NCBI GenBank assembly: GCA_014380365.1
Contig: JACMJZ010000012.1
Location: 62,001 to 126,000 of the forward strand
Origin: Pyrinomonadaceae bacterium
Lineage (GTDB): Bacteria; Acidobacteriota; Blastocatellia; Pyrinomonadales; Pyrinomonadaceae
Length of the DNA stretch: 64,000 bases
Reading direction: 5' to 3'
Shown here: in pieces, positions 22,881-34,541 of the stretch
How the letters are laid out: each line of letters begins with the position of its first letter
How positions within the stretch are numbered: position 1 is the stretch's first letter
Made by a program: the position numbers and the translations under genes
The notes under the pieces: generated by a model
The model's database searches: none
Told to the model about the DNA's origin: nothing
Seen by the model: the letters and a program-made list of their open reading frames with translations, nothing else

Positions 22881-25118
22881 CTATTTAAGTCGCGCGCCGT
22901 TGGGAACGTCTTCAGTAAACGTAGCGAGAACAGGCTTGTCCCCATCGCCTACGGAAGCGGCCAGCAGCATGCCCTGCGATTCATGACCGCGCATCTTGCG
23001 TGGCTTGAGGTTCGCCACTACGGCTATCTTGCGGCCTACGAGCTGATCTGGTTCGTAATGTTCCGCTATCCCGGCAAGGATGGTTCGCGGCTTCTCTTCG
23101 CCGACATCTACAGTTAGTAGCAAGAGCTTGTCGGCTTTTGGGATACGCGCTGCGGTCAAGACTTCGCCGACGCGTAGCTCCACTTTTGTGAAGTCCGTGA
23201 TGTCGATGAAATTGGTTACCCCCTCAACGCCTGCAACTGCGTCCGCTTCAGTCGCGCCCTGCTGTGGCGGCGCGGGTTTCGTGTCAGGCGCGGTTGGACT
23301 GTTGGCGACGGCGTCGGCTTCGGTTGCGCGTGCACCTCTATCAAGCGACTCTTCTTGGTCGCCCGCGGCTGACATTTCCTTACTTACCCGGTCGCTACCG
23401 CTCCCGGGACTGACAGCGCTCGCGGGTGCGTCTTGGGTTGTCGCCGCTGAAGTTTCTGATTCGTGGATTTCATTCATGGTTTTTACTTTGTCGATTCTCG
23501 GGAATAGTGGTTTCACTTCGCCAATGATTGTGCCTTCGGCAAGCTCGCCCCATTTCAGTTTCGCGGGATCGCTCGCTGACGGCGAATCTTGCAGGCCGAG
23601 TTGCTGCCAAACCTCCGTAGTGGCGCCGGGCATCACTGGGTAGAGCATGACACACAACCAACGCAGTGATTCAGCCGCGCGATACAGCACCGCATTCAAC
23701 GTCTGCTTCTGGTTTTCATCTTTGGCGAGTTCCCATGGCTTCGCTTCCGAAATCATTTTGTCGGCGCGCGCCACAATCGACCACGCAACTTCGAGTGCCC
23801 GGCTGAAGGCGTAGGCGTCGAAGTGTTGGAGAAACTGATCGCGAGCGAGTGCGATGAAACCGGAGATCGTTGTTTCGTCGGTGTCGACCAAGGCACGTTT
23901 CGCCAGCAGCAGCTTCTCTTCTGAAATAGCGCCCGACGGCACGCCCCCGTCCGAGTAACGCGAAATCATAGTCAGCGTTCGGCTCGAAAGATTTCCCAGT
24001 CCGCTTGCTAGATCGCTGTTGGTTCGATCGATCAACGCTTCGTAGCCAAACTTTCCGTCCTGGCCGAAGACCATCTCGCGGAGACAGAAATACCTGATCG
24101 CATCAATCGGGAAGTAACGATTCAGCACATCCAGCTCTACCGTGTTGCCGAGCGTCTTCGACATTTTTCGCCCGTTTGGATCGAGCCACATGCCGTGGGC
24201 CACAACTGCGCGCGGCTGCTCCACACCCGCGGCCATCAGGAACGCCGGCCAATAGACGGCGTGAAAACGCAAAATGTCTTTGCCCACCAGGTGGAGCGCG
24301 GGCCAGAATTTCTCAAAGCCCACCGCTCGTTCCCGCTCTTGGTTTCCAAATCCAATCGCCGTTATGTAATTTGTCAGCGCGTCGAACCACACGTACATCG
24401 TGTGCTCGGGATCGTCTGGCACAGGAACGCCCCAGCTAACTGACGTTCTCAACCGACTGACCGAGAGGTCCTGTAGGCCACCCTGTACAAAACTCATTAC
24501 CTCGTTTCGTCTTGATTGAGGCTGCACAAACTCCGGACGCGCGTTGTACAAATCCAGAAGCGCTTCAGCGTAGTCGCCGAGCCGAAAGAAGTAACTGTCT
24601 TCGGAAACGCGATCGAGCGGAGTTTCATGAACCAGGCAAGTCGGCGGTGCATCAGGATTCGTCGGTTTTGCGTATTCGTCCTCCGTCTTGTACGCCGCGC
24701 AAGGTGCGCAAAACCAGCCTTCATAGTGTCCTTTGTAGATTGCGCTATTGCCTTTCGGCGTCTTTGCCGCCGCGGCTCGCCGCCAGAGTTCGCTGACGCC
24801 CTGATAGTGGAAAGGCTCGCTGGTGCGCATGAAGATGTCGTAACCGCCATGCTCCGTATCGAGACGAAACTCAGCGGTCATCTTCTTAAAATAACTGACT
24901 ACATAATCGGCTTGTTCACGCGGGCTACGACCCGCACGCGCAGCCGCACGTTCGATATTTATTCCGTGCTCGTCGGTGCCGGTCAGGAAAAACGTTTCAA
25001 TTCCCTGCTGTCGTTTGCGGCGCGCAATCGTGTCCGCGACGATCATCGTGTAGAGATGGCCGAGATGCGGAAGGCTGTTGGCGTAGTAGATGGGTGTTGT
25101 GACGTAGAAGGTATTCAT
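22881..25118 (-). CDS. metG: Methionine--tRNA ligase with C-terminal tRNA-binding domain
   Basis: A class I synthetase charging tRNA-Met. The ATG at 25116-25118 gives MNTFYVTTPIYYANSLPHLG, placing the HLGH signature at 18-21 exactly as in the family; a longer reading is open but unsupported. A zinc-knuckle pair (CAPC, later CLVHE) and the KMSKT loop at 318-322 are present. The anticodon-binding helical domain follows. The last ~105 residues (FTKVELRVGEVLTAARIPKA, then KPRKMRGHESQGMLLAAS) are an EMAP/Arc1p-like tRNA-binding domain that helps dimerise the enzyme. A ~75-residue low-complexity linker (GATEADAVA twice, AVSPGSGSDRVSKE) separates them; part of it is coded by a repeat, unusual for an essential enzyme. 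Confidence 0.95.
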   Translation of the reverse strand: MNTFYVTTPIYYANSLPHLGHLYTMIVADTIARRKRQQGIETFFLTGTDEHGINIERAAARAGRSPREQADYVVSYFKKMTAEFRLDTEHGGYDIFMRTSEPFHYQGVSELWRRAAAAKTPKGNSAIYKGHYEGWFCAPCAAYKTEDEYAKPTNPDAPPTCLVHETPLDRVSEDSYFFRLGDYAEALLDLYNARPEFVQPQSRRNEVMSFVQGGLQDLSVSRLRTSVSWGVPVPDDPEHTMYVWFDALTNYITAIGFGNQERERAVGFEKFWPALHLVGKDILRFHAVYWPAFLMAAGVEQPRAVVAHGMWLDPNGRKMSKTLGNTVELDVLNRYFPIDAIRYFCLREMVFGQDGKFGYEALIDRTNSDLASGLGNLSSRTLTMISRYSDGGVPSGAISEEKLLLAKRALVDTDETTISGFIALARDQFLQHFDAYAFSRALEVAWSIVARADKMISEAKPWELAKDENQKQTLNAVLYRAAESLRWLCVMLYPVMPGATTEVWQQLGLQDSPSASDPAKLKWGELAEGTIIGEVKPLFPRIDKVKTMNEIHESETSAATTQDAPASAVSPGSGSDRVSKEMSAAGDQEESLDRGARATEADAVANSPTAPDTKPAPPQQGATEADAVAGVEGVTNFIDITDFTKVELRVGEVLTAARIPKADKLLLLTVDVGEEKPRTILAGIAEHYEPDQLVGRKIAVVANLKPRKMRGHESQGMLLAASVGDGDKPVLATFTEDVPNGARLK
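23387..23413. repeat. Short palindromic repeat inside metG linker
   Basis: ACCCGGTCGCTACCGCTCCC is a near-palindrome read in-frame as part of PGSGSDRVS. It falls exactly in the low-complexity linker between the anticodon-binding and tRNA-binding domains. Confidence 0.5.
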
Positions 25119-25357
25119 GCGAGCTATACAGCAACCGACCCTTCTCTTCTCCATTGGTTGAAACGCAATATCATACACTCTGCAAACTTTCGATGCGCAT
25201 ACTGGTAAATGCAAAACTTCTGGCAGCGCACCTATGTCTCTGTGCGGTCCTGATCTCTTTAATCCGCCACTCAATGCGTATATAAGTGTCGTCAGGAGTT
25301 TCTATCGCACGGCGAGGCCGGGAGAAGAATAAGCGTGAGAGGTTAGAAATCAAAGTC

Positions 25358-27660: not shown

Positions 27661-27770
27661 CAGAAGCCCGACCGTTAGGGAGGGCCCTTCTGAGCGGTTA
27701 AGTAACTGGCAGCCGCGCTGAGGAGCCTTGCTAACGCGCAAGCTTCTGATTGGGCGGGCTTCTGATTCAT
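27661..27770. repeat. Inverted repeat family B, copy 2
   Basis: CAGAAGCCCGACCGTTAGGG with a degenerate partner TGGGCGGGCTTCTGATT 90 bases later. It lies in the divergent region between larC and argS. Confidence 0.65.
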
Positions 27771-27865
27771 CAGGCTTCGGATTAGTTTGCCTAAACCACC
27801 TAAGCTATACTTTCCGCTTTTGCGGGACGTGGGGTTCCGGCACAGACGAGGAAGAACAGAGCGAA

Positions 27866-29926
27866 GTGAACCTAATCGAAATTCAAGATCGACTGAAACA
27901 GCAAGTACGTGCATCCGCGCTTGAGCTTTTTGGCGTGGAACTTGACCAAGTTAACGCCGAAACACCGCCGCGGGCTGAACTGGGCGACTTAGCGTTTCCC
28001 GTAGCTTTCGAGTTGGCCAAGCTCGTCAAGCAAGGCACGGGCGTGAAACTACCGCCGCGAACAATCGCTGAACAGTTGAAGGCAAAGCTGGAACATTCAC
28101 CAGAGGTAGATAGAGTCGAAGTTGCCGGCGCGGGTTACCTTAACGTGTTTTTCAATCGTGCCAGGCTGCTTGCGTTGTTCGCTGTTGCGAAAGCGGACCC
28201 TGAAGGTGTGCCTTCGCCGTTACCGGATCGGCCAAAGAAAATGGTCGAACACACCAGCATCAACCCAAACAAAGCCGCGCACATTGGCCACGTGCGAAAC
28301 GCAGTGCTCGGCGATACATTCGTTCGAATTCTCCAGGCTGCCGACGAACGTGTGGAAGTTCAAAATTACATCGACAACACCGGCGTGCAGGTTGCCGACG
28401 TAGTAGTGGGCTTCATGCACATCGAGAAGATGAACCTCGATGACATCAAGGCGCTGGACAGTTCACTTCCTTCCGAACGGCCTTTTGATTACTACTGCTG
28501 GGACCTTTACACCAAGGTCGGCCTCTTTTACCGCGACGGCAACCCGCAGACAGAACCAAATGCCGAGCGGCTAAAACTACGCACTGACGTATTGCATGCG
28601 CTTGAGGAGGGCAACAGTTCCACCGCCGCACTTGCTGATTACGTCGCTACGCGAAACGTCGAGTGCATTCTCGACACTATGGAGCGCCTGGAGATTCGGT
28701 ACGATCTGCTGGCGCGAGAATCAGACATCCTGCATCTGCATTTTTGGGACAGGGCCTTTGAACTGATGAAAGCGGCCGGTGTACTCAGGTTGGAAACTGA
28801 GGGCAAGCACGCGGGGTGCTGGGTGATGCCGTTTGAGTCGCACACAGGAACGGACGAACACGAGTCTGACAAGATAATCGTGCGTTCGAATGGAACGGTG
28901 ACCTACACCGGCAAAGACATCGCCTACCAACTTTGGAAGCTCGGCCACTTGGGCTTGGATTTCAATTACAAGCCCTTTCGCGCCTATCCGGATGGGCACA
29001 TCGCATGGGTCACGACAACGGAGCCCAACAGTGAGATGTTACCCGAGGTGCCGCGTCCGGATTTTGGCAGCGGCGTTAAGGTTTACAACGTTATCGACTC
29101 GCGACAGTCGTATCCGCAGGAGATTGTTGCACGCGGTGTTGCCGCGGTTGTTCCCGAGGTCGGTGCTGACTCCAGCACGCATCTTGGTTACGAAATGGTG
29201 GCGCTTTCACCGGCCGCTTGCGCTGAACTGGGAATTCAGTTGAGCGATGCAGATCGCGCCCGGCCTTTCGTTGAAATGAGCGGAAGGAAAGGCCTGGGCG
29301 TGAAGGCCGATGACCTGATTGATCGCCTCGAAGCGGACGCGTTTCGAGAGGTTGCGACCAGGCATGCAGAACTATCAATTGCCGAACAACAGGAAACCGC
29401 GCATCAGATCGCGGTCGGGGCCCTCCGCTATTTCCTGCTGAAGTTCACCCGGAATTCCGTAATTGCCTTCGACTTCAAGGAAGCGCTTTCCTTTGAAGGT
29501 GAGACGGGTCCCTACTGTCAATACGCAGCGGTGCGCGCTAATTCAATCTTCCGCAAGCTTGGTGATGAGGCAGCGGCTGCAGTGGCCGCTCTGGTTGACG
29601 ACACGAGCGGTAAACCCGAGATGGCGTCACGCGTTTCTGAACCTCTGGCAGGTGAGTCTGGGACTGAAATCTGGTCGCTGGTGATGTTGGCTGAACGGCT
29701 TGACGAGGTCATCGCGCTTTGTGCCGCCTCTGCTGAGCCGGCGAACCTGGCGAAGTACACGTTCACACTCGCGCGCGCATTCAACCTCTTCTATCATCGT
29801 CACCGAATAATCGCTGAACAGGATGAGACGAAGCGCGCGGTGCTGATTGCCGTTGCCCAGATTGCTCGCCGCCGTCTGACTTCAGCCCTGGCAACCTTGG
29901 GAATTGCTGTTCCGGAGCGGATGTAG
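27866..29926 (+). CDS. argS: Arginine--tRNA ligase
   Basis: A 686-residue class I synthetase that charges tRNA-Arg. The GTG at 27866, with GAGGAAG about a dozen bases upstream, gives the family N-terminus (Add1 domain: IQDRLKQQVRASALELFGVE); the frame is open further upstream but that part is not conserved. TSINPNKAAHIGHVRNAVLG holds the HIGH motif. The second signature loop is MSGRKGLGVKADDLID, the non-canonical form usual for ArgRS instead of KMSKS. The C-terminal anticodon domain starts with ALSFEGETGPYCQYAAVR. It is transcribed away from larC and precedes the low-GC tryptophan block by 118 bases. Single copy in this window; essential housekeeping role expected. Confidence 0.95.
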   Translation: MNLIEIQDRLKQQVRASALELFGVELDQVNAETPPRAELGDLAFPVAFELAKLVKQGTGVKLPPRTIAEQLKAKLEHSPEVDRVEVAGAGYLNVFFNRARLLALFAVAKADPEGVPSPLPDRPKKMVEHTSINPNKAAHIGHVRNAVLGDTFVRILQAADERVEVQNYIDNTGVQVADVVVGFMHIEKMNLDDIKALDSSLPSERPFDYYCWDLYTKVGLFYRDGNPQTEPNAERLKLRTDVLHALEEGNSSTAALADYVATRNVECILDTMERLEIRYDLLARESDILHLHFWDRAFELMKAAGVLRLETEGKHAGCWVMPFESHTGTDEHESDKIIVRSNGTVTYTGKDIAYQLWKLGHLGLDFNYKPFRAYPDGHIAWVTTTEPNSEMLPEVPRPDFGSGVKVYNVIDSRQSYPQEIVARGVAAVVPEVGADSSTHLGYEMVALSPAACAELGIQLSDADRARPFVEMSGRKGLGVKADDLIDRLEADAFREVATRHAELSIAEQQETAHQIAVGALRYFLLKFTRNSVIAFDFKEALSFEGETGPYCQYAAVRANSIFRKLGDEAAAAVAALVDDTSGKPEMASRVSEPLAGESGTEIWSLVMLAERLDEVIALCAASAEPANLAKYTFTLARAFNLFYHRHRIIAEQDETKRAVLIAVAQIARRRLTSALATLGIAVPERM

Positions 29927-30044: not shown

Positions 30045-30836
30045 ATGTCCTTACCTCTTCCGTTCGAGTATCAATCAAGTGGATTCTCAGAGCCGGGAAT
30101 CTTCGTTGAGCTATACCTCCCGAAGCGAGCAAAATTCCAAGGCATCCTGTACAAGACTTTGACCAATGGATTCGATTTTGATCACGTACGTCGTCACTTC
30201 TTAAATCCCCGGAAGCGACCATTGATCAAGAAGGTACTGCAACATCATGATCAGTGGAGAAAGTATTCAAGCAAGAGCATCCTGGAGATGAAGCCCTTCT
30301 ATTGGGGATACTCGTTGTATGAGGTTGATGGGGTGTTTTTCGGTAAGCAGGGCCGGAGAGTCAAGAAACGACAGATCATTGAAGAACGAACGCAAGTCAT
30401 TAGAATGATGTTCTTACCGGAGCTGGGCGGAGCGGTTGGTAAGCTCAGGCCAAGAATGGCCCGCAAAACGGTAGTCGATATTTTCAAGCTTTATCTGCGA
30501 ACTTCCGGGCACAAGCGAGGAGTGCGCGGTGCCAGCGTTGTTGAGAAGAGCATCGTTGAACGCATGATGGACCGTAAAGATCCTAAGCTACTTAGACAAT
30601 TGAAGAACGGCAACATCGATAAATTGCTTCAGTACATCGAGAAGTGGTTTGATGATATAGGGCTCTTCCTTTTTGGTTATGTGATTTTCGAGATTTGCTC
30701 CGAAATAAAGATAGTGGGTAAGGACAAGGAAGTTGAATATGAAGATGAGCTTTGGTTAACTTCTTTTTGGAATCTTAATGTGAATCGAGTTAACCTTCTC
30801 AAACAGCCCCGCCCTAAGGAGTTAAGAAAACAATGA
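30045..30836 (+). CDS. Unknown protein opening the TrpRS-TDO block
   Basis: 263 residues, family not recognised. ATG at 30045 with TAAGG nine to thirteen bases upstream. The protein is basic, rich in aromatic and charged residues (SKSILEMKPFYWGYSLYEVD), with Lys/Arg patches (GRRVKKRQIIEER; SGHKRGVRGAS) that could bind nucleic acid. The later part looks helical and hydrophobic (FDDIGLFLFGYVIFEIC). No signal peptide, no clear catalytic motif, no Cys pairs. Its stop overlaps the start of the TrpRS gene by four bases (ATGA at 30833), so the two are translationally coupled and probably function together. Base composition is distinctly AT-richer than argS (23 of 60 G/C at 30661-30720). Confidence 0.65.
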   Translation: MSLPLPFEYQSSGFSEPGIFVELYLPKRAKFQGILYKTLTNGFDFDHVRRHFLNPRKRPLIKKVLQHHDQWRKYSSKSILEMKPFYWGYSLYEVDGVFFGKQGRRVKKRQIIEERTQVIRMMFLPELGGAVGKLRPRMARKTVVDIFKLYLRTSGHKRGVRGASVVEKSIVERMMDRKDPKLLRQLKNGNIDKLLQYIEKWFDDIGLFLFGYVIFEICSEIKIVGKDKEVEYEDELWLTSFWNLNVNRVNLLKQPRPKELRKQ

Positions 30837-31840
30837 AATCGAGAGTTCTCTCCTGTATTCAACCAACCGCGGAAATGCACATCGGCAACTATTTCGGTGC
30901 CGTCAAGAACTGGGTCGATCTCCAGGACTCTCACGACTGCATCTACGGAATTGTCGATTTACATGCGATAACGATGCCCTATGATCCATCGCATCTTCGA
31001 GCGAATACTGAAAGAATGGTGATTGATCTCCTGTCCTGTGGCATCGATCCGGAGAAGGCGATTCTTTTCATCCAGTCTCTCGTTCCAGAGCATGCGGAGT
31101 TATGCTGGATTCTTGGCTGTCTCTGTCCTTATGGAGAGTTGAGCCGAATGACTCAGTTCAAGGATAAGTCGGAGCTCTTAGAGTCTGGGAAGTCATTCAT
31201 CTCGGCGGGTCTTTTCACTTATCCGGTTTTGCAGGCTGCCGATATTCTGATTTACCGCGCTAATTTTGTTCCGGTTGGCAAAGACCAGGAGCAACATCTG
31301 GAGCTGTCGCGCGATTTGGCAGACCGCTTTAACAGGCAGTTTGGCACACAGCTTCTGGTGAAGCCGCAAGCGTTATTCACCGAAACCTCAAAGGTCATGT
31401 CCCTCGCTGATCCGAACAGGAAAATGAGCAAGAGCCTCGGGGATCGTCACTATGTTGGACTGTTTGAAGAAGAGAGCAGCATAAGAGACAAAATAAAGTC
31501 AGCAGTGACGGACAGTGGAGTGCTTCCACCTGGTGTTGGAATGAGCGCTGGAGTAGCAAACCTATTTGAAATTCTTAAGGCATGCGGTAAGAAAGAAGAG
31601 GCATCCTTATTGTGGGGACAATATGAAAGCGGAGGGCTGAAGTACACGGAACTCAAGGACGTTGTAGCGAACTCCCTTGTCGAGCTTACCACCCGTCTCA
31701 GAAGTCGCCGTAAGGAGATTTCGGACGATGCCACCACTTTGAACGCCAAAGTTAAAGAAATGTCCGAAAGGGCTCGTGATCTGGCGAAAGAAACACTAAA
31801 GCTGGTTCGTGAAGTAGTCGGCCTGCCTGAAAGGGAGTAG
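30833..31840 (+). CDS. trpS: Tryptophan--tRNA ligase
   Basis: 335 residues, usual bacterial TrpRS length. It activates tryptophan and loads tRNA-Trp. Class I signatures are intact: HIGN at 16-19 and KMSKS at 197-201. GELSRMTQFKDKS, TYPVLQAADILIY (Asp137, the residue type that reads the indole nitrogen) and VPVGKDQEQHLELSRDLA are as in well-studied TrpRS. One difference is PTAEMHIGN where a Gly usually follows the Thr. Strong ribosome site AAGGAG. It overlaps the unknown gene upstream by four bases and is followed after three bases by a tryptophan dioxygenase. The setting and low GC suggest an accessory copy, but whether the genome has another trpS cannot be seen here. Confidence 0.92.
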   Translation: MKSRVLSCIQPTAEMHIGNYFGAVKNWVDLQDSHDCIYGIVDLHAITMPYDPSHLRANTERMVIDLLSCGIDPEKAILFIQSLVPEHAELCWILGCLCPYGELSRMTQFKDKSELLESGKSFISAGLFTYPVLQAADILIYRANFVPVGKDQEQHLELSRDLADRFNRQFGTQLLVKPQALFTETSKVMSLADPNRKMSKSLGDRHYVGLFEEESSIRDKIKSAVTDSGVLPPGVGMSAGVANLFEILKACGKKEEASLLWGQYESGGLKYTELKDVVANSLVELTTRLRSRRKEISDDATTLNAKVKEMSERARDLAKETLKLVREVVGLPERE

Positions 31841-31843
31841 TAG

Positions 31844-33154
31844 ATGACTGAGACCATTCGAACGGGTGGATCTGATGGCAACTGGTGGTCGTTCTCCATT
31901 AGTGATGAGAAGCGTCGGCTAAAGATCCAAACCGATGTGTCCAGGAACACCTTAGAGGTGAATCCTAATGGACAAATGGATTACACGTCGTATATTGGGC
32001 TCGACGAGCTGCTTGCTTGCCAAGTTCCGAGCTCGCAGATTCCGGATGAACGAGTTTTTATTATTGTTCATCAGCTATTTGAACTAATCTTCAAGCTAAT
32101 GATTTTTGACTTGGCTGTTATTGCCAGGACATTCGAACAACTCCTTCAAGTTCAGGATGACAGCAAATTCTTCCGTATGTGCATGGAGGAGGAAACCTTC
32201 TGGCGTCCCGCCTTGACTGCTAGCGGAAGAATCGAACTCAATTCAAAAACGCTGTTGGGCAACGTTCTAAAAAATCTGAACAACGACGCAACATTTAGCA
32301 GTAAGGAGTTCTACTTCTTCAGACCTTATCTTCCACCGGCTAGTGGATTTCAGACTGCGCAATACAGGCTAATTCAACGGGCATTTGGTAAATCGAATCT
32401 GTTGACGATACGGTTATTTCCCAGCGACATGTTCCGGGAGAAATATGAAGGCAAGACTGACGCAGCCCCTCCTATACAGGTTGTTGATCAATTGATCCTG
32501 CGTGAGGGGGGGGAAATTGCCACTCCGGCAGAAAGCAGAGACTTTGCAATTGTTGCCCGGTTGGATGCTCTTTCACATCAGGTTCTCAGCAGACTTCCCG
32601 ATCCCACCGAGAGTGGATATCAGATAACTACACTGAAGAAGATCCGACCACATGACGTCGACGACGCGGTAGAACAACTAGAATCAAACCTGGCTAATCA
32701 CAGAAAGAAGCAGGGCAGCAAAAAGCCCCCAAACGCCGCAGAGGTCGACGCCGCCGCCTTAAAGCAATTTAGGGAGGACATAGAGGATTCGAAAAATAGA
32801 GAAAATGAACGAAGAGAACTGCTAACTGCGGCTCGTGCAGGTGCAGTTTATCTGCGTAACTTTGCGCCGTGGTCCCATCTTTCGGAAGTGCTAAAGCGAC
32901 TCGTGACTGCTGACAAGGCGCTCCATGGAAAAGATGAGAGTTTCCTGAAACATCACTTCGATCTCGCTGTACGGCAAGAAGCGAGAATAGAAAGACATGC
33001 CGTGGACAGGGGAGAGGCTGAGCAACCGACAGGAACAGGAGGCGGTGGCACTCGGTATTTACTATTAGCCAGACAACTGATCGACTTATTTCCAGCATTG
33101 GTAGCATTTCGTGAACTAGGAGATGTGCACGAAAGATTGAGTTTTGTCGACTAG
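31844..33154 (+). CDS. Tryptophan 2,3-dioxygenase family haem enzyme, extended form
   Basis: 436 residues; canonical TDO opens the indole ring of Trp with O2 to give N-formylkynurenine using haem. Signatures: MDYTSYIGLDELLACQVPSS, FIIVHQLFELIFKL (His76, active-site histidine type), PPASGFQTAQYR (Arg175, substrate carboxylate type), and the C-terminal haem ligand region RHAVDR (His385) with PTGTGGGGTRYL. All key positions expected for catalysis are retained. It is longer than the ~300-residue bacterial enzymes because of an extra, highly charged stretch around 205-335 (e.g. NHRKKQGSKKPPNAAEVD). AGGGAG ribosome site, three bases after trpS. No kynurenine formamidase, kynureninase or other catabolic gene is nearby, so a simple degradation role is not supported. 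Confidence 0.85.
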   Translation: MTETIRTGGSDGNWWSFSISDEKRRLKIQTDVSRNTLEVNPNGQMDYTSYIGLDELLACQVPSSQIPDERVFIIVHQLFELIFKLMIFDLAVIARTFEQLLQVQDDSKFFRMCMEEETFWRPALTASGRIELNSKTLLGNVLKNLNNDATFSSKEFYFFRPYLPPASGFQTAQYRLIQRAFGKSNLLTIRLFPSDMFREKYEGKTDAAPPIQVVDQLILREGGEIATPAESRDFAIVARLDALSHQVLSRLPDPTESGYQITTLKKIRPHDVDDAVEQLESNLANHRKKQGSKKPPNAAEVDAAALKQFREDIEDSKNRENERRELLTAARAGAVYLRNFAPWSHLSEVLKRLVTADKALHGKDESFLKHHFDLAVRQEARIERHAVDRGEAEQPTGTGGGGTRYLLLARQLIDLFPALVAFRELGDVHERLSFVD

Positions 33155-33186
33155 ATAGATAAAACCCGTTAGTAGAAGTGTGAAAT

Positions 33187-33261
33187 GGGGGTATGGTGTT
33201 AATGGCAGCATCGCGGTCTCCAAAACCGAAGGTCCGGGTTCAAATCCTGGTACCCCTGCCA
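33187..33261 (+). tRNA. tRNA-Trp (CCA)
   Basis: A full cloverleaf: acceptor GGGGGTA with TACCCCT (one G-T pair), a D arm GTGT/GCAT with GG in the loop, anticodon loop CTCCAAA with CCA at 33220-33222, a four-base variable loop, and T arm CCGGG/CCTGG around TTCAAAT. Discriminator G and an encoded CCA end follow (33258-33261). The top pair of the anticodon stem is a G-A mismatch (33213/33229). It lies 33 bases after the dioxygenase stop, on the same strand, beside a TrpRS gene. Many bacteria keep the housekeeping tRNA-Trp next to secE, which is not here. Confidence 0.92.
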
Positions 33262-33521
33262 ACAATAGTTTGGGGCTTCGAGCCGACATCTGCGTCACTC
33301 CGACACAAAGCTTCCCAAACCAAGCGAGTGGATTTGAATGAACCCTCCGTCCAGGTCTTACTTCTCCCTTCTTGATTTCTACGCCGCTTATGGCCTTTGG
33401 TGATAGAGTAAACAGTGCCGAACAGTACCGCTTGCTAAAGTAATCAGCCGCCTGTGGATGTTATGGTATGTCGATTCGGTTTGTTGAATCTGTAAATCAA
33501 AAGTGAATGTGGGGAGAGCCA

Positions 33522-34541
33522 GTGCTTATCCTAATGCAAGCTAACGCGACGGACAGCCAGATTGAGGCCGTTGTGCGCGCGATTGAAGACCTGGGTTACC
33601 GGGCGCATGTAATGCCGGGGGCGACGCGCGTCGCAATTGGGGTTACAGGAAATGAAGGCGCTATCGATGCCGCACGCTTCGAGAACATGCCGGGAATTGC
33701 GGAAGCAGTTCGCGTAAGCAAGCCTTACAAACTAGTCACTCTCGATTTTCATTCCGAAAAGACAGTTGTCCGTGTAGGCGACGCAACCATCGGCGGCGAC
33801 GACTTGGCAATCATTGCCGGACCCTGTGCCATTGAAAGCCGCGCTCAGGCATTCGCTATTGCTGAAACAGTACGTCGCAGTGGGGCTCGCTTCTTTCGCG
33901 GCGGCGCATTTAAACCACGAACGTCTCCCTATGCTTTCCAGGGTCTCGGCGAAGAGGGACTCAGAATTTTGGCAGAGATTCGAGAGACCTATGGATTGAA
34001 AATAGTTACCGAAGCTGTCGACGAAGCTGGCGTAGACCTCGTCGAGCGCTATGGCGATGTGATTCAAATCGGCGCCCGCAGCATGCAAAACTTTACGTTG
34101 CTGCGCCGCGCGGGCAAATCCCGGCTGCCGGTACTGCTAAAACGCGGACTATCGGCAACTCTCGATGAATGGTTGCTCGCAGCGGAATACATCATGTCGG
34201 AGGGCAACTCTCAAGTCGTTCTCTGCGAGCGAGGCATCCGCACGTTTTCCCAGCACACCCGGAACACATTAGACCTCGCAGTCATACCTGCCGTGCGTCG
34301 CGTTTCGCATCTGCCGGTCATAGTGGATCCGTCCCATGGAACCGGGAAGAACTACATGGTTACGGCACTCGCGCGCGCAGGTGTAGCGGTTGGAGCCGAC
34401 GGTCTAATCGTGGAAGTGCACGATGCTCCGGCGCAAGCGCTCTCGGATGGCGCTCAGGCACTGAGATTGGAACAGTATGAACAACTGGTCAGCGAGGTAC
34501 GGGCGATTCACGAGGTAATGGCGCCAGCTGCGGTCAGCTAG
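33522..34541 (+). CDS. aroF: 3-deoxy-7-phosphoheptulonate synthase (DAHP synthase, AroF/AroG type I-beta)
   Basis: 339 residues from the GTG at 33522, which has GGGGAGA six bases upstream; an ATG at 33507 is in frame but precedes this ribosome site. It joins phosphoenolpyruvate and erythrose-4-phosphate, the first step towards Phe, Tyr and Trp. The N-terminal ~90 residues form the ferredoxin-like regulatory domain ([33 protein letters not shown]) of the I-beta class. Barrel signatures are [41 protein letters not shown] and [13 protein letters not shown]. It is 260 bases downstream of the tRNA-Trp; that gap shows no gene. Its neighbourhood with a tryptophan block is suggestive, but no direct link is visible. 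Confidence 0.94.

What the first reader, a model, noticed from the sequence alone, without database searches (positions are those of the whole stretch)
30045..33261. Four-gene tryptophan block: unknown protein, TrpRS, tryptophan dioxygenase and tRNA-Trp
Seen: the unknown gene overlaps trpS by 4 bases, trpS is 3 bases from a TDO-family gene, and a CCA-anticodon tRNA-Trp follows after 33 bases, all on one strand and mostly AT-richer (38% and 32% GC on single 60-base lines at 30661 and 32041, against 63% at 29281 in argS). No kynurenine pathway genes are nearby. Known parallels: Deinococcus radiodurans pairs an auxiliary TrpRS with nitric oxide synthase, another haem enzyme acting on Trp; in mammals IDO and TrpRS are induced together by interferon-gamma. 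Inference: a tRNA-linked Trp oxidation or Trp-depletion system in which a dedicated TrpRS/tRNA pair either presents Trp to the dioxygenase or protects translation.
Basis: partly seen in the sequence, partly recalled or inferred. Interest (0 to 1): 0.88.

Follow-up and report, generated by a model that had tools for sequence, protein, structure and literature searches.

The report
Imported TrpRS cassette replaced native trpS
This bacterium appears to have lost its own gene for the essential enzyme that loads tryptophan onto tRNA and to rely on a foreign copy, packed in a small cassette with a tryptophan-oxidising-type enzyme, a protein of unknown kind and a tryptophan tRNA.

Summary
The four-part block is real: orphan ORF, trpS, TDO-family ORF and tRNA-Trp, tightly packed on one strand. 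It is a GC-poor insertion between argS and aroF, which are neighbours without it in 13 of 13 congeners with an argS match. The trpS does not look auxiliary. It is the only trpS over cut-off in the 95%-complete assembly. The ancestral trpS, found between an M50 protease gene and scpA in 11 of 12 congener trpS loci (the 12th is cut by its contig end), is missing from that assembled locus here. The imported TrpRS belongs to a distant clade, while the tRNA-Trp resembles the local class type, so the two seem to differ in origin. The TDO homologue keeps a TDO-type pocket (F72, H76, R160, PASG, GTGG) but is long and divergent. The orphan has no credible relative. The cassette was found nowhere else in what was searched. 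Whether the native tRNA-Trp survives cannot be told. Best reading: an acquired cassette displaced the housekeeping TrpRS. A link between Trp oxidation and charging is inferred, not shown.

The parts
30045..30836 (+). orphan ORF, 263 aa, pI about 10, first gene of the cassette; function unknown
   Evidence: no credible hit in Pfam, NCBIfam, PADLOC, PHROGs, none in plasmids, phages, viral contigs; in 1 of 396 phylum genomes, its own
30833..31840 (+). trpS, 335 aa; only TrpRS gene over cut-off in the assembly; xenologue of the genus type
   Evidence: HIGN at 16, KMSKS at 197, Q154/E157, D137, H44 kept
31844..33154 (+). TDO-family (haem-dependent aromatic oxygenase) homologue, 436 aa, with an N-terminal extension and insertions of about 22 and 100 residues; F72, H76, R160, PASG 165-168, GTGG 397-400
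   Evidence: loop motifs from PMC11904535 passages
33187..33261 (+). tRNA-Trp (CCA), class-type but diverged, CCA end encoded; Rfam 49.1 bits
27854..29926 (+). argS, left flank (first codon set here at 27854 by me; the longest ORF starts at 27728)
33507..34541 (+). DAHP synthase gene (aroF type), right flank

Best explanation
A small foreign cassette (orphan, trpS, TDO homologue, with a tRNA-Trp behind) sits between argS and aroF in this one lineage, and the cell has since lost its own trpS, so the cassette's TrpRS now charges all tRNA-Trp. Shown by sequence: the insertion, the sole trpS over cut-off in the assembly, the absence of the ancestral trpS at its own assembled locus, the foreign clade of the TrpRS, and the kept TDO pocket residues. 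Inferred: by supplying an essential enzyme the cassette has become hard to lose. The TDO homologue is probably an active haem enzyme on Trp or a Trp-like indole, made together with TrpRS, so that Trp oxidation and Trp charging are set together; TrpRS and the extra tRNA-Trp keep translation going. The orphan, basic and possibly nucleic-acid binding, is unassigned.
For: argS-aroF adjacent (about 11-466 bases apart) without the cassette in 13 of 13 congeners with an argS match, of 15 congeners searched. One TIGR00233 match over cut-off in the own genome; the second match is TyrRS. M50 protease, trpS and scpA in a row in 11 of 12 congener trpS loci (the 12th starts inside trpS at a contig end) and in 5 of 8 loci of other class members (the other 3 show trpS alone within the 1.5-kb flanks held); in G000 the protease stop and the scpA start are 45 bases apart with no trpS, the neighbours keep the congener order, and there is no N. 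Island TrpRS in a 100/99 clade with G059, Chloroflexota and Bacteroidota rows, apart from the genus clade (100/100) and the class clade (97/96). GC and GC3 shift. TDO motifs.
Against: The assembly is 95% complete, and a moved native trpS in a gap is not excluded; two congeners of lower completeness (G405, G408) also show no trpS over cut-off. The cassette was found once only, so no conserved gene order supports a joint function. The proximal haem histidine could not be placed (H385 is a candidate). Promoter- and terminator-like sites are no more than in shuffles, and the repeats found are short two-copy ones. Both structure models are unusable. The displacement core is shared with the first three rivals, so the confidences do not add up to one.
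Confidence: 0.6

Rival explanations
1. Plain xenologous replacement of an aminoacyl-tRNA synthetase, with the TDO homologue and orphan as unrelated passengers (the TDO perhaps just a catabolic Trp dioxygenase). No functional system.
For: The block was found nowhere else. Loci of the nearest TrpRS genes hold no TDO homologue or orphan: 0 of 80 loci (flanks up to 6 kb, shorter at contig ends) and 0 of 5 loci. TrpRS exchange looks common here: the genus TrpRS is itself of another clade than that of other class members.
Against: Tight overlap and 3-base spacing, and three Trp-related parts of four in 3.2 kb, with a tRNA-Trp added.
Confidence: 0.3
2. Antibiotic-resistance cassette: a TrpRS insensitive to a Trp-mimicking inhibitor, with the TDO homologue opening the indole ring of the drug.
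For: Second, resistant TrpRS genes are known in indolmycin producers (PMC9437257 and PMC5069768, passages). Repeated replacement of TrpRS in this lineage. A target replaced as a whole.
Against: The indolmycin contacts named in PMC4899734 (Bs H43, D132, Q147; passages) correspond, by motif (my mapping; the Bs sequence was not aligned), to H44, D137 and Q152, which are invariant in alignment A3 (51), so the best-known resistance change is absent. Nothing here points to a drug.
Confidence: 0.12
3. Defence or abortive system: the TDO homologue (and orphan) deplete Trp or attack tRNA-Trp on a trigger, while the island TrpRS and altered tRNA-Trp are spared; the native trpS was lost because it was superseded.
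For: The tRNA-Trp differs at sites constant or nearly so in ten class members. Basic orphan. Small foreign island. The same argS-aroF gap in congener G406 holds a RelB-like antitoxin ORF (96, 97).
Against: No credible PADLOC hit for the three proteins. The ten flanking ORFs scanned with Pfam show no obvious defence gene; PADLOC was not run on them. No relatives to show linkage with defence islands.
Confidence: 0.13
4. The native trpS (and tRNA-Trp) still exist in an unassembled part and the cassette is auxiliary.
For: Completeness 95%. nusG, next to secE and tRNA-Trp in G197, was not found in the assembly (one search had no positive control).
Against: The native trpS locus itself is assembled, without N, and lacks trpS.
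Confidence: 0.1

Closest known systems
Xenologous displacement of aminoacyl-tRNA synthetases, including ileS2/mupirocin- and trpS/indolmycin-type resistant copies
   Same: A foreign synthetase takes over or backs up an essential charging step.
   Different: Here the ancestral gene is missing from its locus, the foreign gene sits elsewhere in a cassette with a TDO homologue, an orphan and a tRNA-Trp, and the named indolmycin contacts are of the sensitive type (51, 93).
Deinococcus TrpRS II with nitric oxide synthase
   Same: TrpRS associated with a haem enzyme that acts on Trp (PMC9437257 passages).
   Different: The chain named TrpRS II (2a4m) scores 138.9 bits against 278.2 for the best ordinary bacterial TrpRS; here the TrpRS is the sole copy found and the partner is a TDO-family protein. 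That 2a4m is from Deinococcus is recalled.
Tryptophan 2,3-dioxygenase (KynA, TIGR03036/PF03301)
   Same: Pocket residues F, H, R, PASG, GTGG; significant profile match over the first half.
   Different: 436 aa against about 260-290 for the 11 ordinary rows of A2, with insertions; 65 bits against a TIGR03036 cut-off of 390.7.
MarE-type 2-oxindole monooxygenase
   Same: Same superfamily, acting on a Trp derivative.
   Different: MarE has DATG/SLGGR loops (PMC11904535 passages); the island protein has PASG/GTGG.
Interferon-induced IDO with TrpRS in mammals
   Same: Trp oxidation paired with Trp charging (abstract starts in the listing).
   Different: IDO is another subfamily (recalled); no induction or function was tested here.

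Membership tests
bacterial TrpRS (TIGR00233) | profile score over cut-off and class I signatures | tested here: met
   297.7 against 176.75 bits; HIGN 16, KMSKS 197 (91)
bacterial TrpRS (TIGR00233) | G73-reading Gln/Glu (Ec Q152, E155) and indole-reading Asp | tested here: met
   Q154, E157, D137 invariant in A3 (51), matched to the E. coli residues by motif; meaning from PMC12135181 passages
bacterial TrpRS (TIGR00233) | charges tRNA-Trp | not testable with these tools
   needs an assay
tryptophan 2,3-dioxygenase | PF03301 gathering score | tested here: met
   63.3 against 34.9 bits, residues 43-191 only
tryptophan 2,3-dioxygenase | TIGR03036 equivalog cut-off | tested here: not met
   65 against 390.7 bits
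tryptophan 2,3-dioxygenase | distal Phe/His, carboxylate Arg, PASG and GTGGS loops | tested here: met
   F72, H76, R160, PASG, GTGGG: the last Ser is Gly (45, 91)
tryptophan 2,3-dioxygenase | proximal haem His 13 residues before GTGG (as in the ordinary rows of A2) | tested here: inconclusive
   H385 lies 12 before G397; MAFFT put another His (H286) in that column, and a profile of ordinary TDOs did not align the stretch
Deinococcus TrpRS II | closest to TrpRS II sequences and auxiliary to another TrpRS | tested here: not met
   138.9 against 278.2 bits; sole trpS over cut-off
indolmycin-resistant TrpRS | loss of the Bs H43-type contact | tested here: not met
   H44 kept; contact from PMC4899734 passages, mapped by motif
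known anti-phage system | match to a PADLOC model | tested here: not met
   only a 14.8-bit match (E 0.0024) to Cas12u1 over residues 271-332 of the TDO homologue, judged chance
tRNA-Trp | cloverleaf, CCA anticodon, G73 | tested here: met
   one non-standard pair, the outermost of the anticodon stem; G1 in place of A1 (37)

The most novel reading that the evidence does not exclude
A Trp-conflict cassette: the TDO homologue and basic orphan attack Trp, a Trp-like compound or tRNA-Trp, the island TrpRS and altered tRNA-Trp are the immune partner, and once present the cassette made the native trpS dispensable and itself essential, an addiction module built on a housekeeping synthetase.
Probability: 0.17. 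Interest if true: 0.85.

Novelty: new variant of a known kind. Interest (0 to 1): 0.52.

Why it matters
Loss of the ancestral gene for an essential synthetase, caught with the replacing cassette in place, lets one ask directly how an imported TrpRS takes over and why it travels with a Trp oxygenase homologue and a tRNA. If the parts work together, it would be a bacterial pairing of Trp destruction and Trp charging, and a way for a small element to make itself indispensable.

Tried and rejected
Finding the cassette elsewhere. TDO protein: scans of genome contigs and viral contigs, which need an exact stretch of eight residues and so reach close relatives only, gave none; a viral scan with alignment A2 gave none; phages none; plasmids 71 records, all under 60% identity and none covering 80% of the query. 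In 297 phylum genomes 69 besides its own have a match at E 0.001, the best at 5e-11 (12). Of the 29 such loci looked at, 20 gave TDO-like ORF matches at 26-32% identity, and none matched the C-terminal part beyond chance. In 162 class genomes one besides its own passes E 1e-9, at 4e-10 (68). Orphan: plasmids, phages, viral contigs, 396 phylum genomes, none besides its own. No metagenome scan was allowed.

Structures: both AlphaFold2 models, made without alignment, had mean pLDDT 36.4 and 40.5 (67, 65), so no fold search was run. A weak PDB match of the orphan to a gasdermin-like protein (E 0.05, 16.4 bits) was taken as chance.

The nusG search found nothing in G000 but had no positive control; the query is a true NusG by Pfam.

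tRNA comparison: the donor-side pattern hit 4 of 12 genomes, so 8 are not represented. Rows dropped before the identity count: L232 and L069, in which ARAGORN found no tRNA.

A first TrpRS tree contained wrong reading frames for high-GC rows and was discarded; one search replaces it with rows taken from tblastn (42 rows chosen by me from the loci at hand). Holding the island TrpRS and G059 together is not rejected (p-AU 0.577).

In print: open PubMed Central searches (no paper with all three terms; 20 of 1,778 listed; 15 of 461 listed; 4 listed) showed nothing on a bacterial TrpRS-TDO operon; two were on resistance and mobile synthetases. Only those listings were seen. PMC2922099, on synthetase-like proteins in peptide synthesis, was searched for passages and names no such pair (63).

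Changed after checking: identities, the GC range, the tRNA pair count and the wording on absence were mended; some searches were added.
Full report
What is there. The block is as described: an orphan ORF (30045-30836), trpS (30833-31840), a TDO-family ORF (31844-33154) and tRNA-Trp (33187-33261), with a 4-base overlap, a 3-base gap and a 32-base gap. The trpS is a full bacterial TrpRS. The third ORF passes the Pfam TDO cut-off over residues 43-191 but falls far short of the TDO equivalog cut-off. The orphan has no credible family match and a calculated pI near 10. GC is 45-49% per gene and GC3 0.48-0.54, against 0.63 for the other ORFs of the window together.

Where it sits. In relatives, argS and the DAHP synthase gene aroF are neighbours: the 13 congeners with an argS match, of 15 searched, all show both on one locus, about 11 to 466 bases apart, with no match to the orphan or the TDO homologue. 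The gap differs in content between the nine relatives whose sequence was read, and in G406 it holds a RelB-like antitoxin ORF, so this spot accepts small insertions. The block is therefore an insertion in this lineage, a little over 3 kb long; its exact ends cannot be set because the surrounding intergenic DNA is poorly conserved.

The trpS is the only one found, and the ancestral one is missing. A TIGR00233 search of the own assembly (95.07% complete, 34 contigs) gives one match over cut-off, this gene; the second, weak match is TyrRS. In congeners trpS lies between an M50 protease gene and scpA: 11 of 12 congener trpS loci show all three, and the 12th, cut by its contig end, shows trpS followed by scpA. 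The same row is seen in 5 of 8 loci of other class members; the other 3 show trpS alone within the flanks held. In this genome the same region is assembled without N, with the neighbours in order, but the protease stop and the scpA start are 45 bases apart and trpS is absent. Two incomplete congeners (G405, G408) also show no trpS over cut-off, which cautions against reading absence from an assembly alone; here, however, the locus itself is present.

Origins. The island TrpRS is 39-43% identical to the TrpRS of its congeners and 65% identical to that of G059, a member of another class of the same phylum. In the tree it falls in a 100/99 clade, unresolved inside, with G059, a Chloroflexota MAG and Bacteroidota; the congeners form a 100/100 clade and seven other class members a third clade (97/96). 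The loci of the nearest TrpRS genes show no TDO homologue or orphan. In one Saprospiraceae locus trpS lies between a RidA-type and an S-adenosylmethionine synthetase gene; that the other loci hold ordinary chromosomal genes was read by eye only. The tRNA-Trp, in contrast, is 82-88% identical to those of ten class members (six of them congeners) and 65-72% identical to those of four genomes with island-type or next-nearest TrpRS (the pattern used found a tRNA in 4 of 12 such genomes). It differs from the class consensus by G1, one D-loop base fewer and a non-standard outermost pair of the anticodon stem. So TrpRS and tRNA probably did not come together from the island-type lineages sampled; an unsampled donor with both is not excluded. 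The native tRNA-Trp cannot be judged: nusG, which with secE follows tRNA-Trp in G197, was not found in this assembly (without a positive control), and the tRNA pattern finds the native type in 6 of 14 congeners only.

The TDO homologue. Against 11 ordinary TDOs it keeps F72, H76, R160, PASG 165-168 and GTGG 397-400. According to passages of PMC11904535, PASG and GTGGS are the loops of true TDOs, whereas the monooxygenase MarE has DATG and SLGGR; the island protein is thus of TDO type, with the last Ser changed to Gly. It has an N-terminal extension of about 40 residues and insertions of about 22 and 100 residues, and the proximal haem histidine is not certain: H385 stands 12 residues before GTGG, against 13 in the ordinary rows. 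No other TDO-like match at E 0.001 was found in the own genome.

Mechanism. Shown: an inserted cassette carries the only TrpRS gene found, and the ancestral gene is missing from its locus. Inferred: the cassette is now indispensable; its TDO homologue is an active haem enzyme on Trp or a Trp-like indole; and joint translation with TrpRS sets Trp oxidation and charging together. The indolmycin contacts named in PMC4899734 passages are, mapped by motif, all kept in the island TrpRS, which speaks against the simplest resistance reading. The TrpRS is not of the TrpRS II type. A plain replacement with unrelated passengers remains a serious rival, because the cassette was found nowhere else: own genome only among 162 class genomes by the TDO protein and among 396 phylum genomes by the orphan, and none in the viral, phage and plasmid collections searched.

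Limits. Structure models were of no use. No metagenome scan was allowed. Function was not tested.

Noticed in passing
L037-L047 against L048-L050, L053, L055 (native trpS loci): The TrpRS of the genus is of another clade than that of other class members although both sit between an M50 protease gene and scpA, which suggests an earlier in-place replacement.
   Followed up: partly
L105, reverse strand, argS-aroF gap (G406): A RelB-like antitoxin ORF and an adjoining frame sit in the same intergenic gap in a congener, a second small insertion at this spot.
   Followed up: partly
L100:8510-9178 and congener loci: Two types of the M50 protease gene (about 42-53% identical) occur at the same locus within one genus.
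   Followed up: no
L148:3346-4359: In a Chloroflexota MAG with an island-type TrpRS, a DAHP synthase gene lies about 0.9 kb upstream of trpS; possibly chance, but aroF also flanks the island here.
   Followed up: no
window 22881-25274 and 27854-29926: A methionyl-tRNA synthetase-like gene and argS also lie close by, so with trpS three synthetase genes fall within about 9 kb.
   Followed up: no
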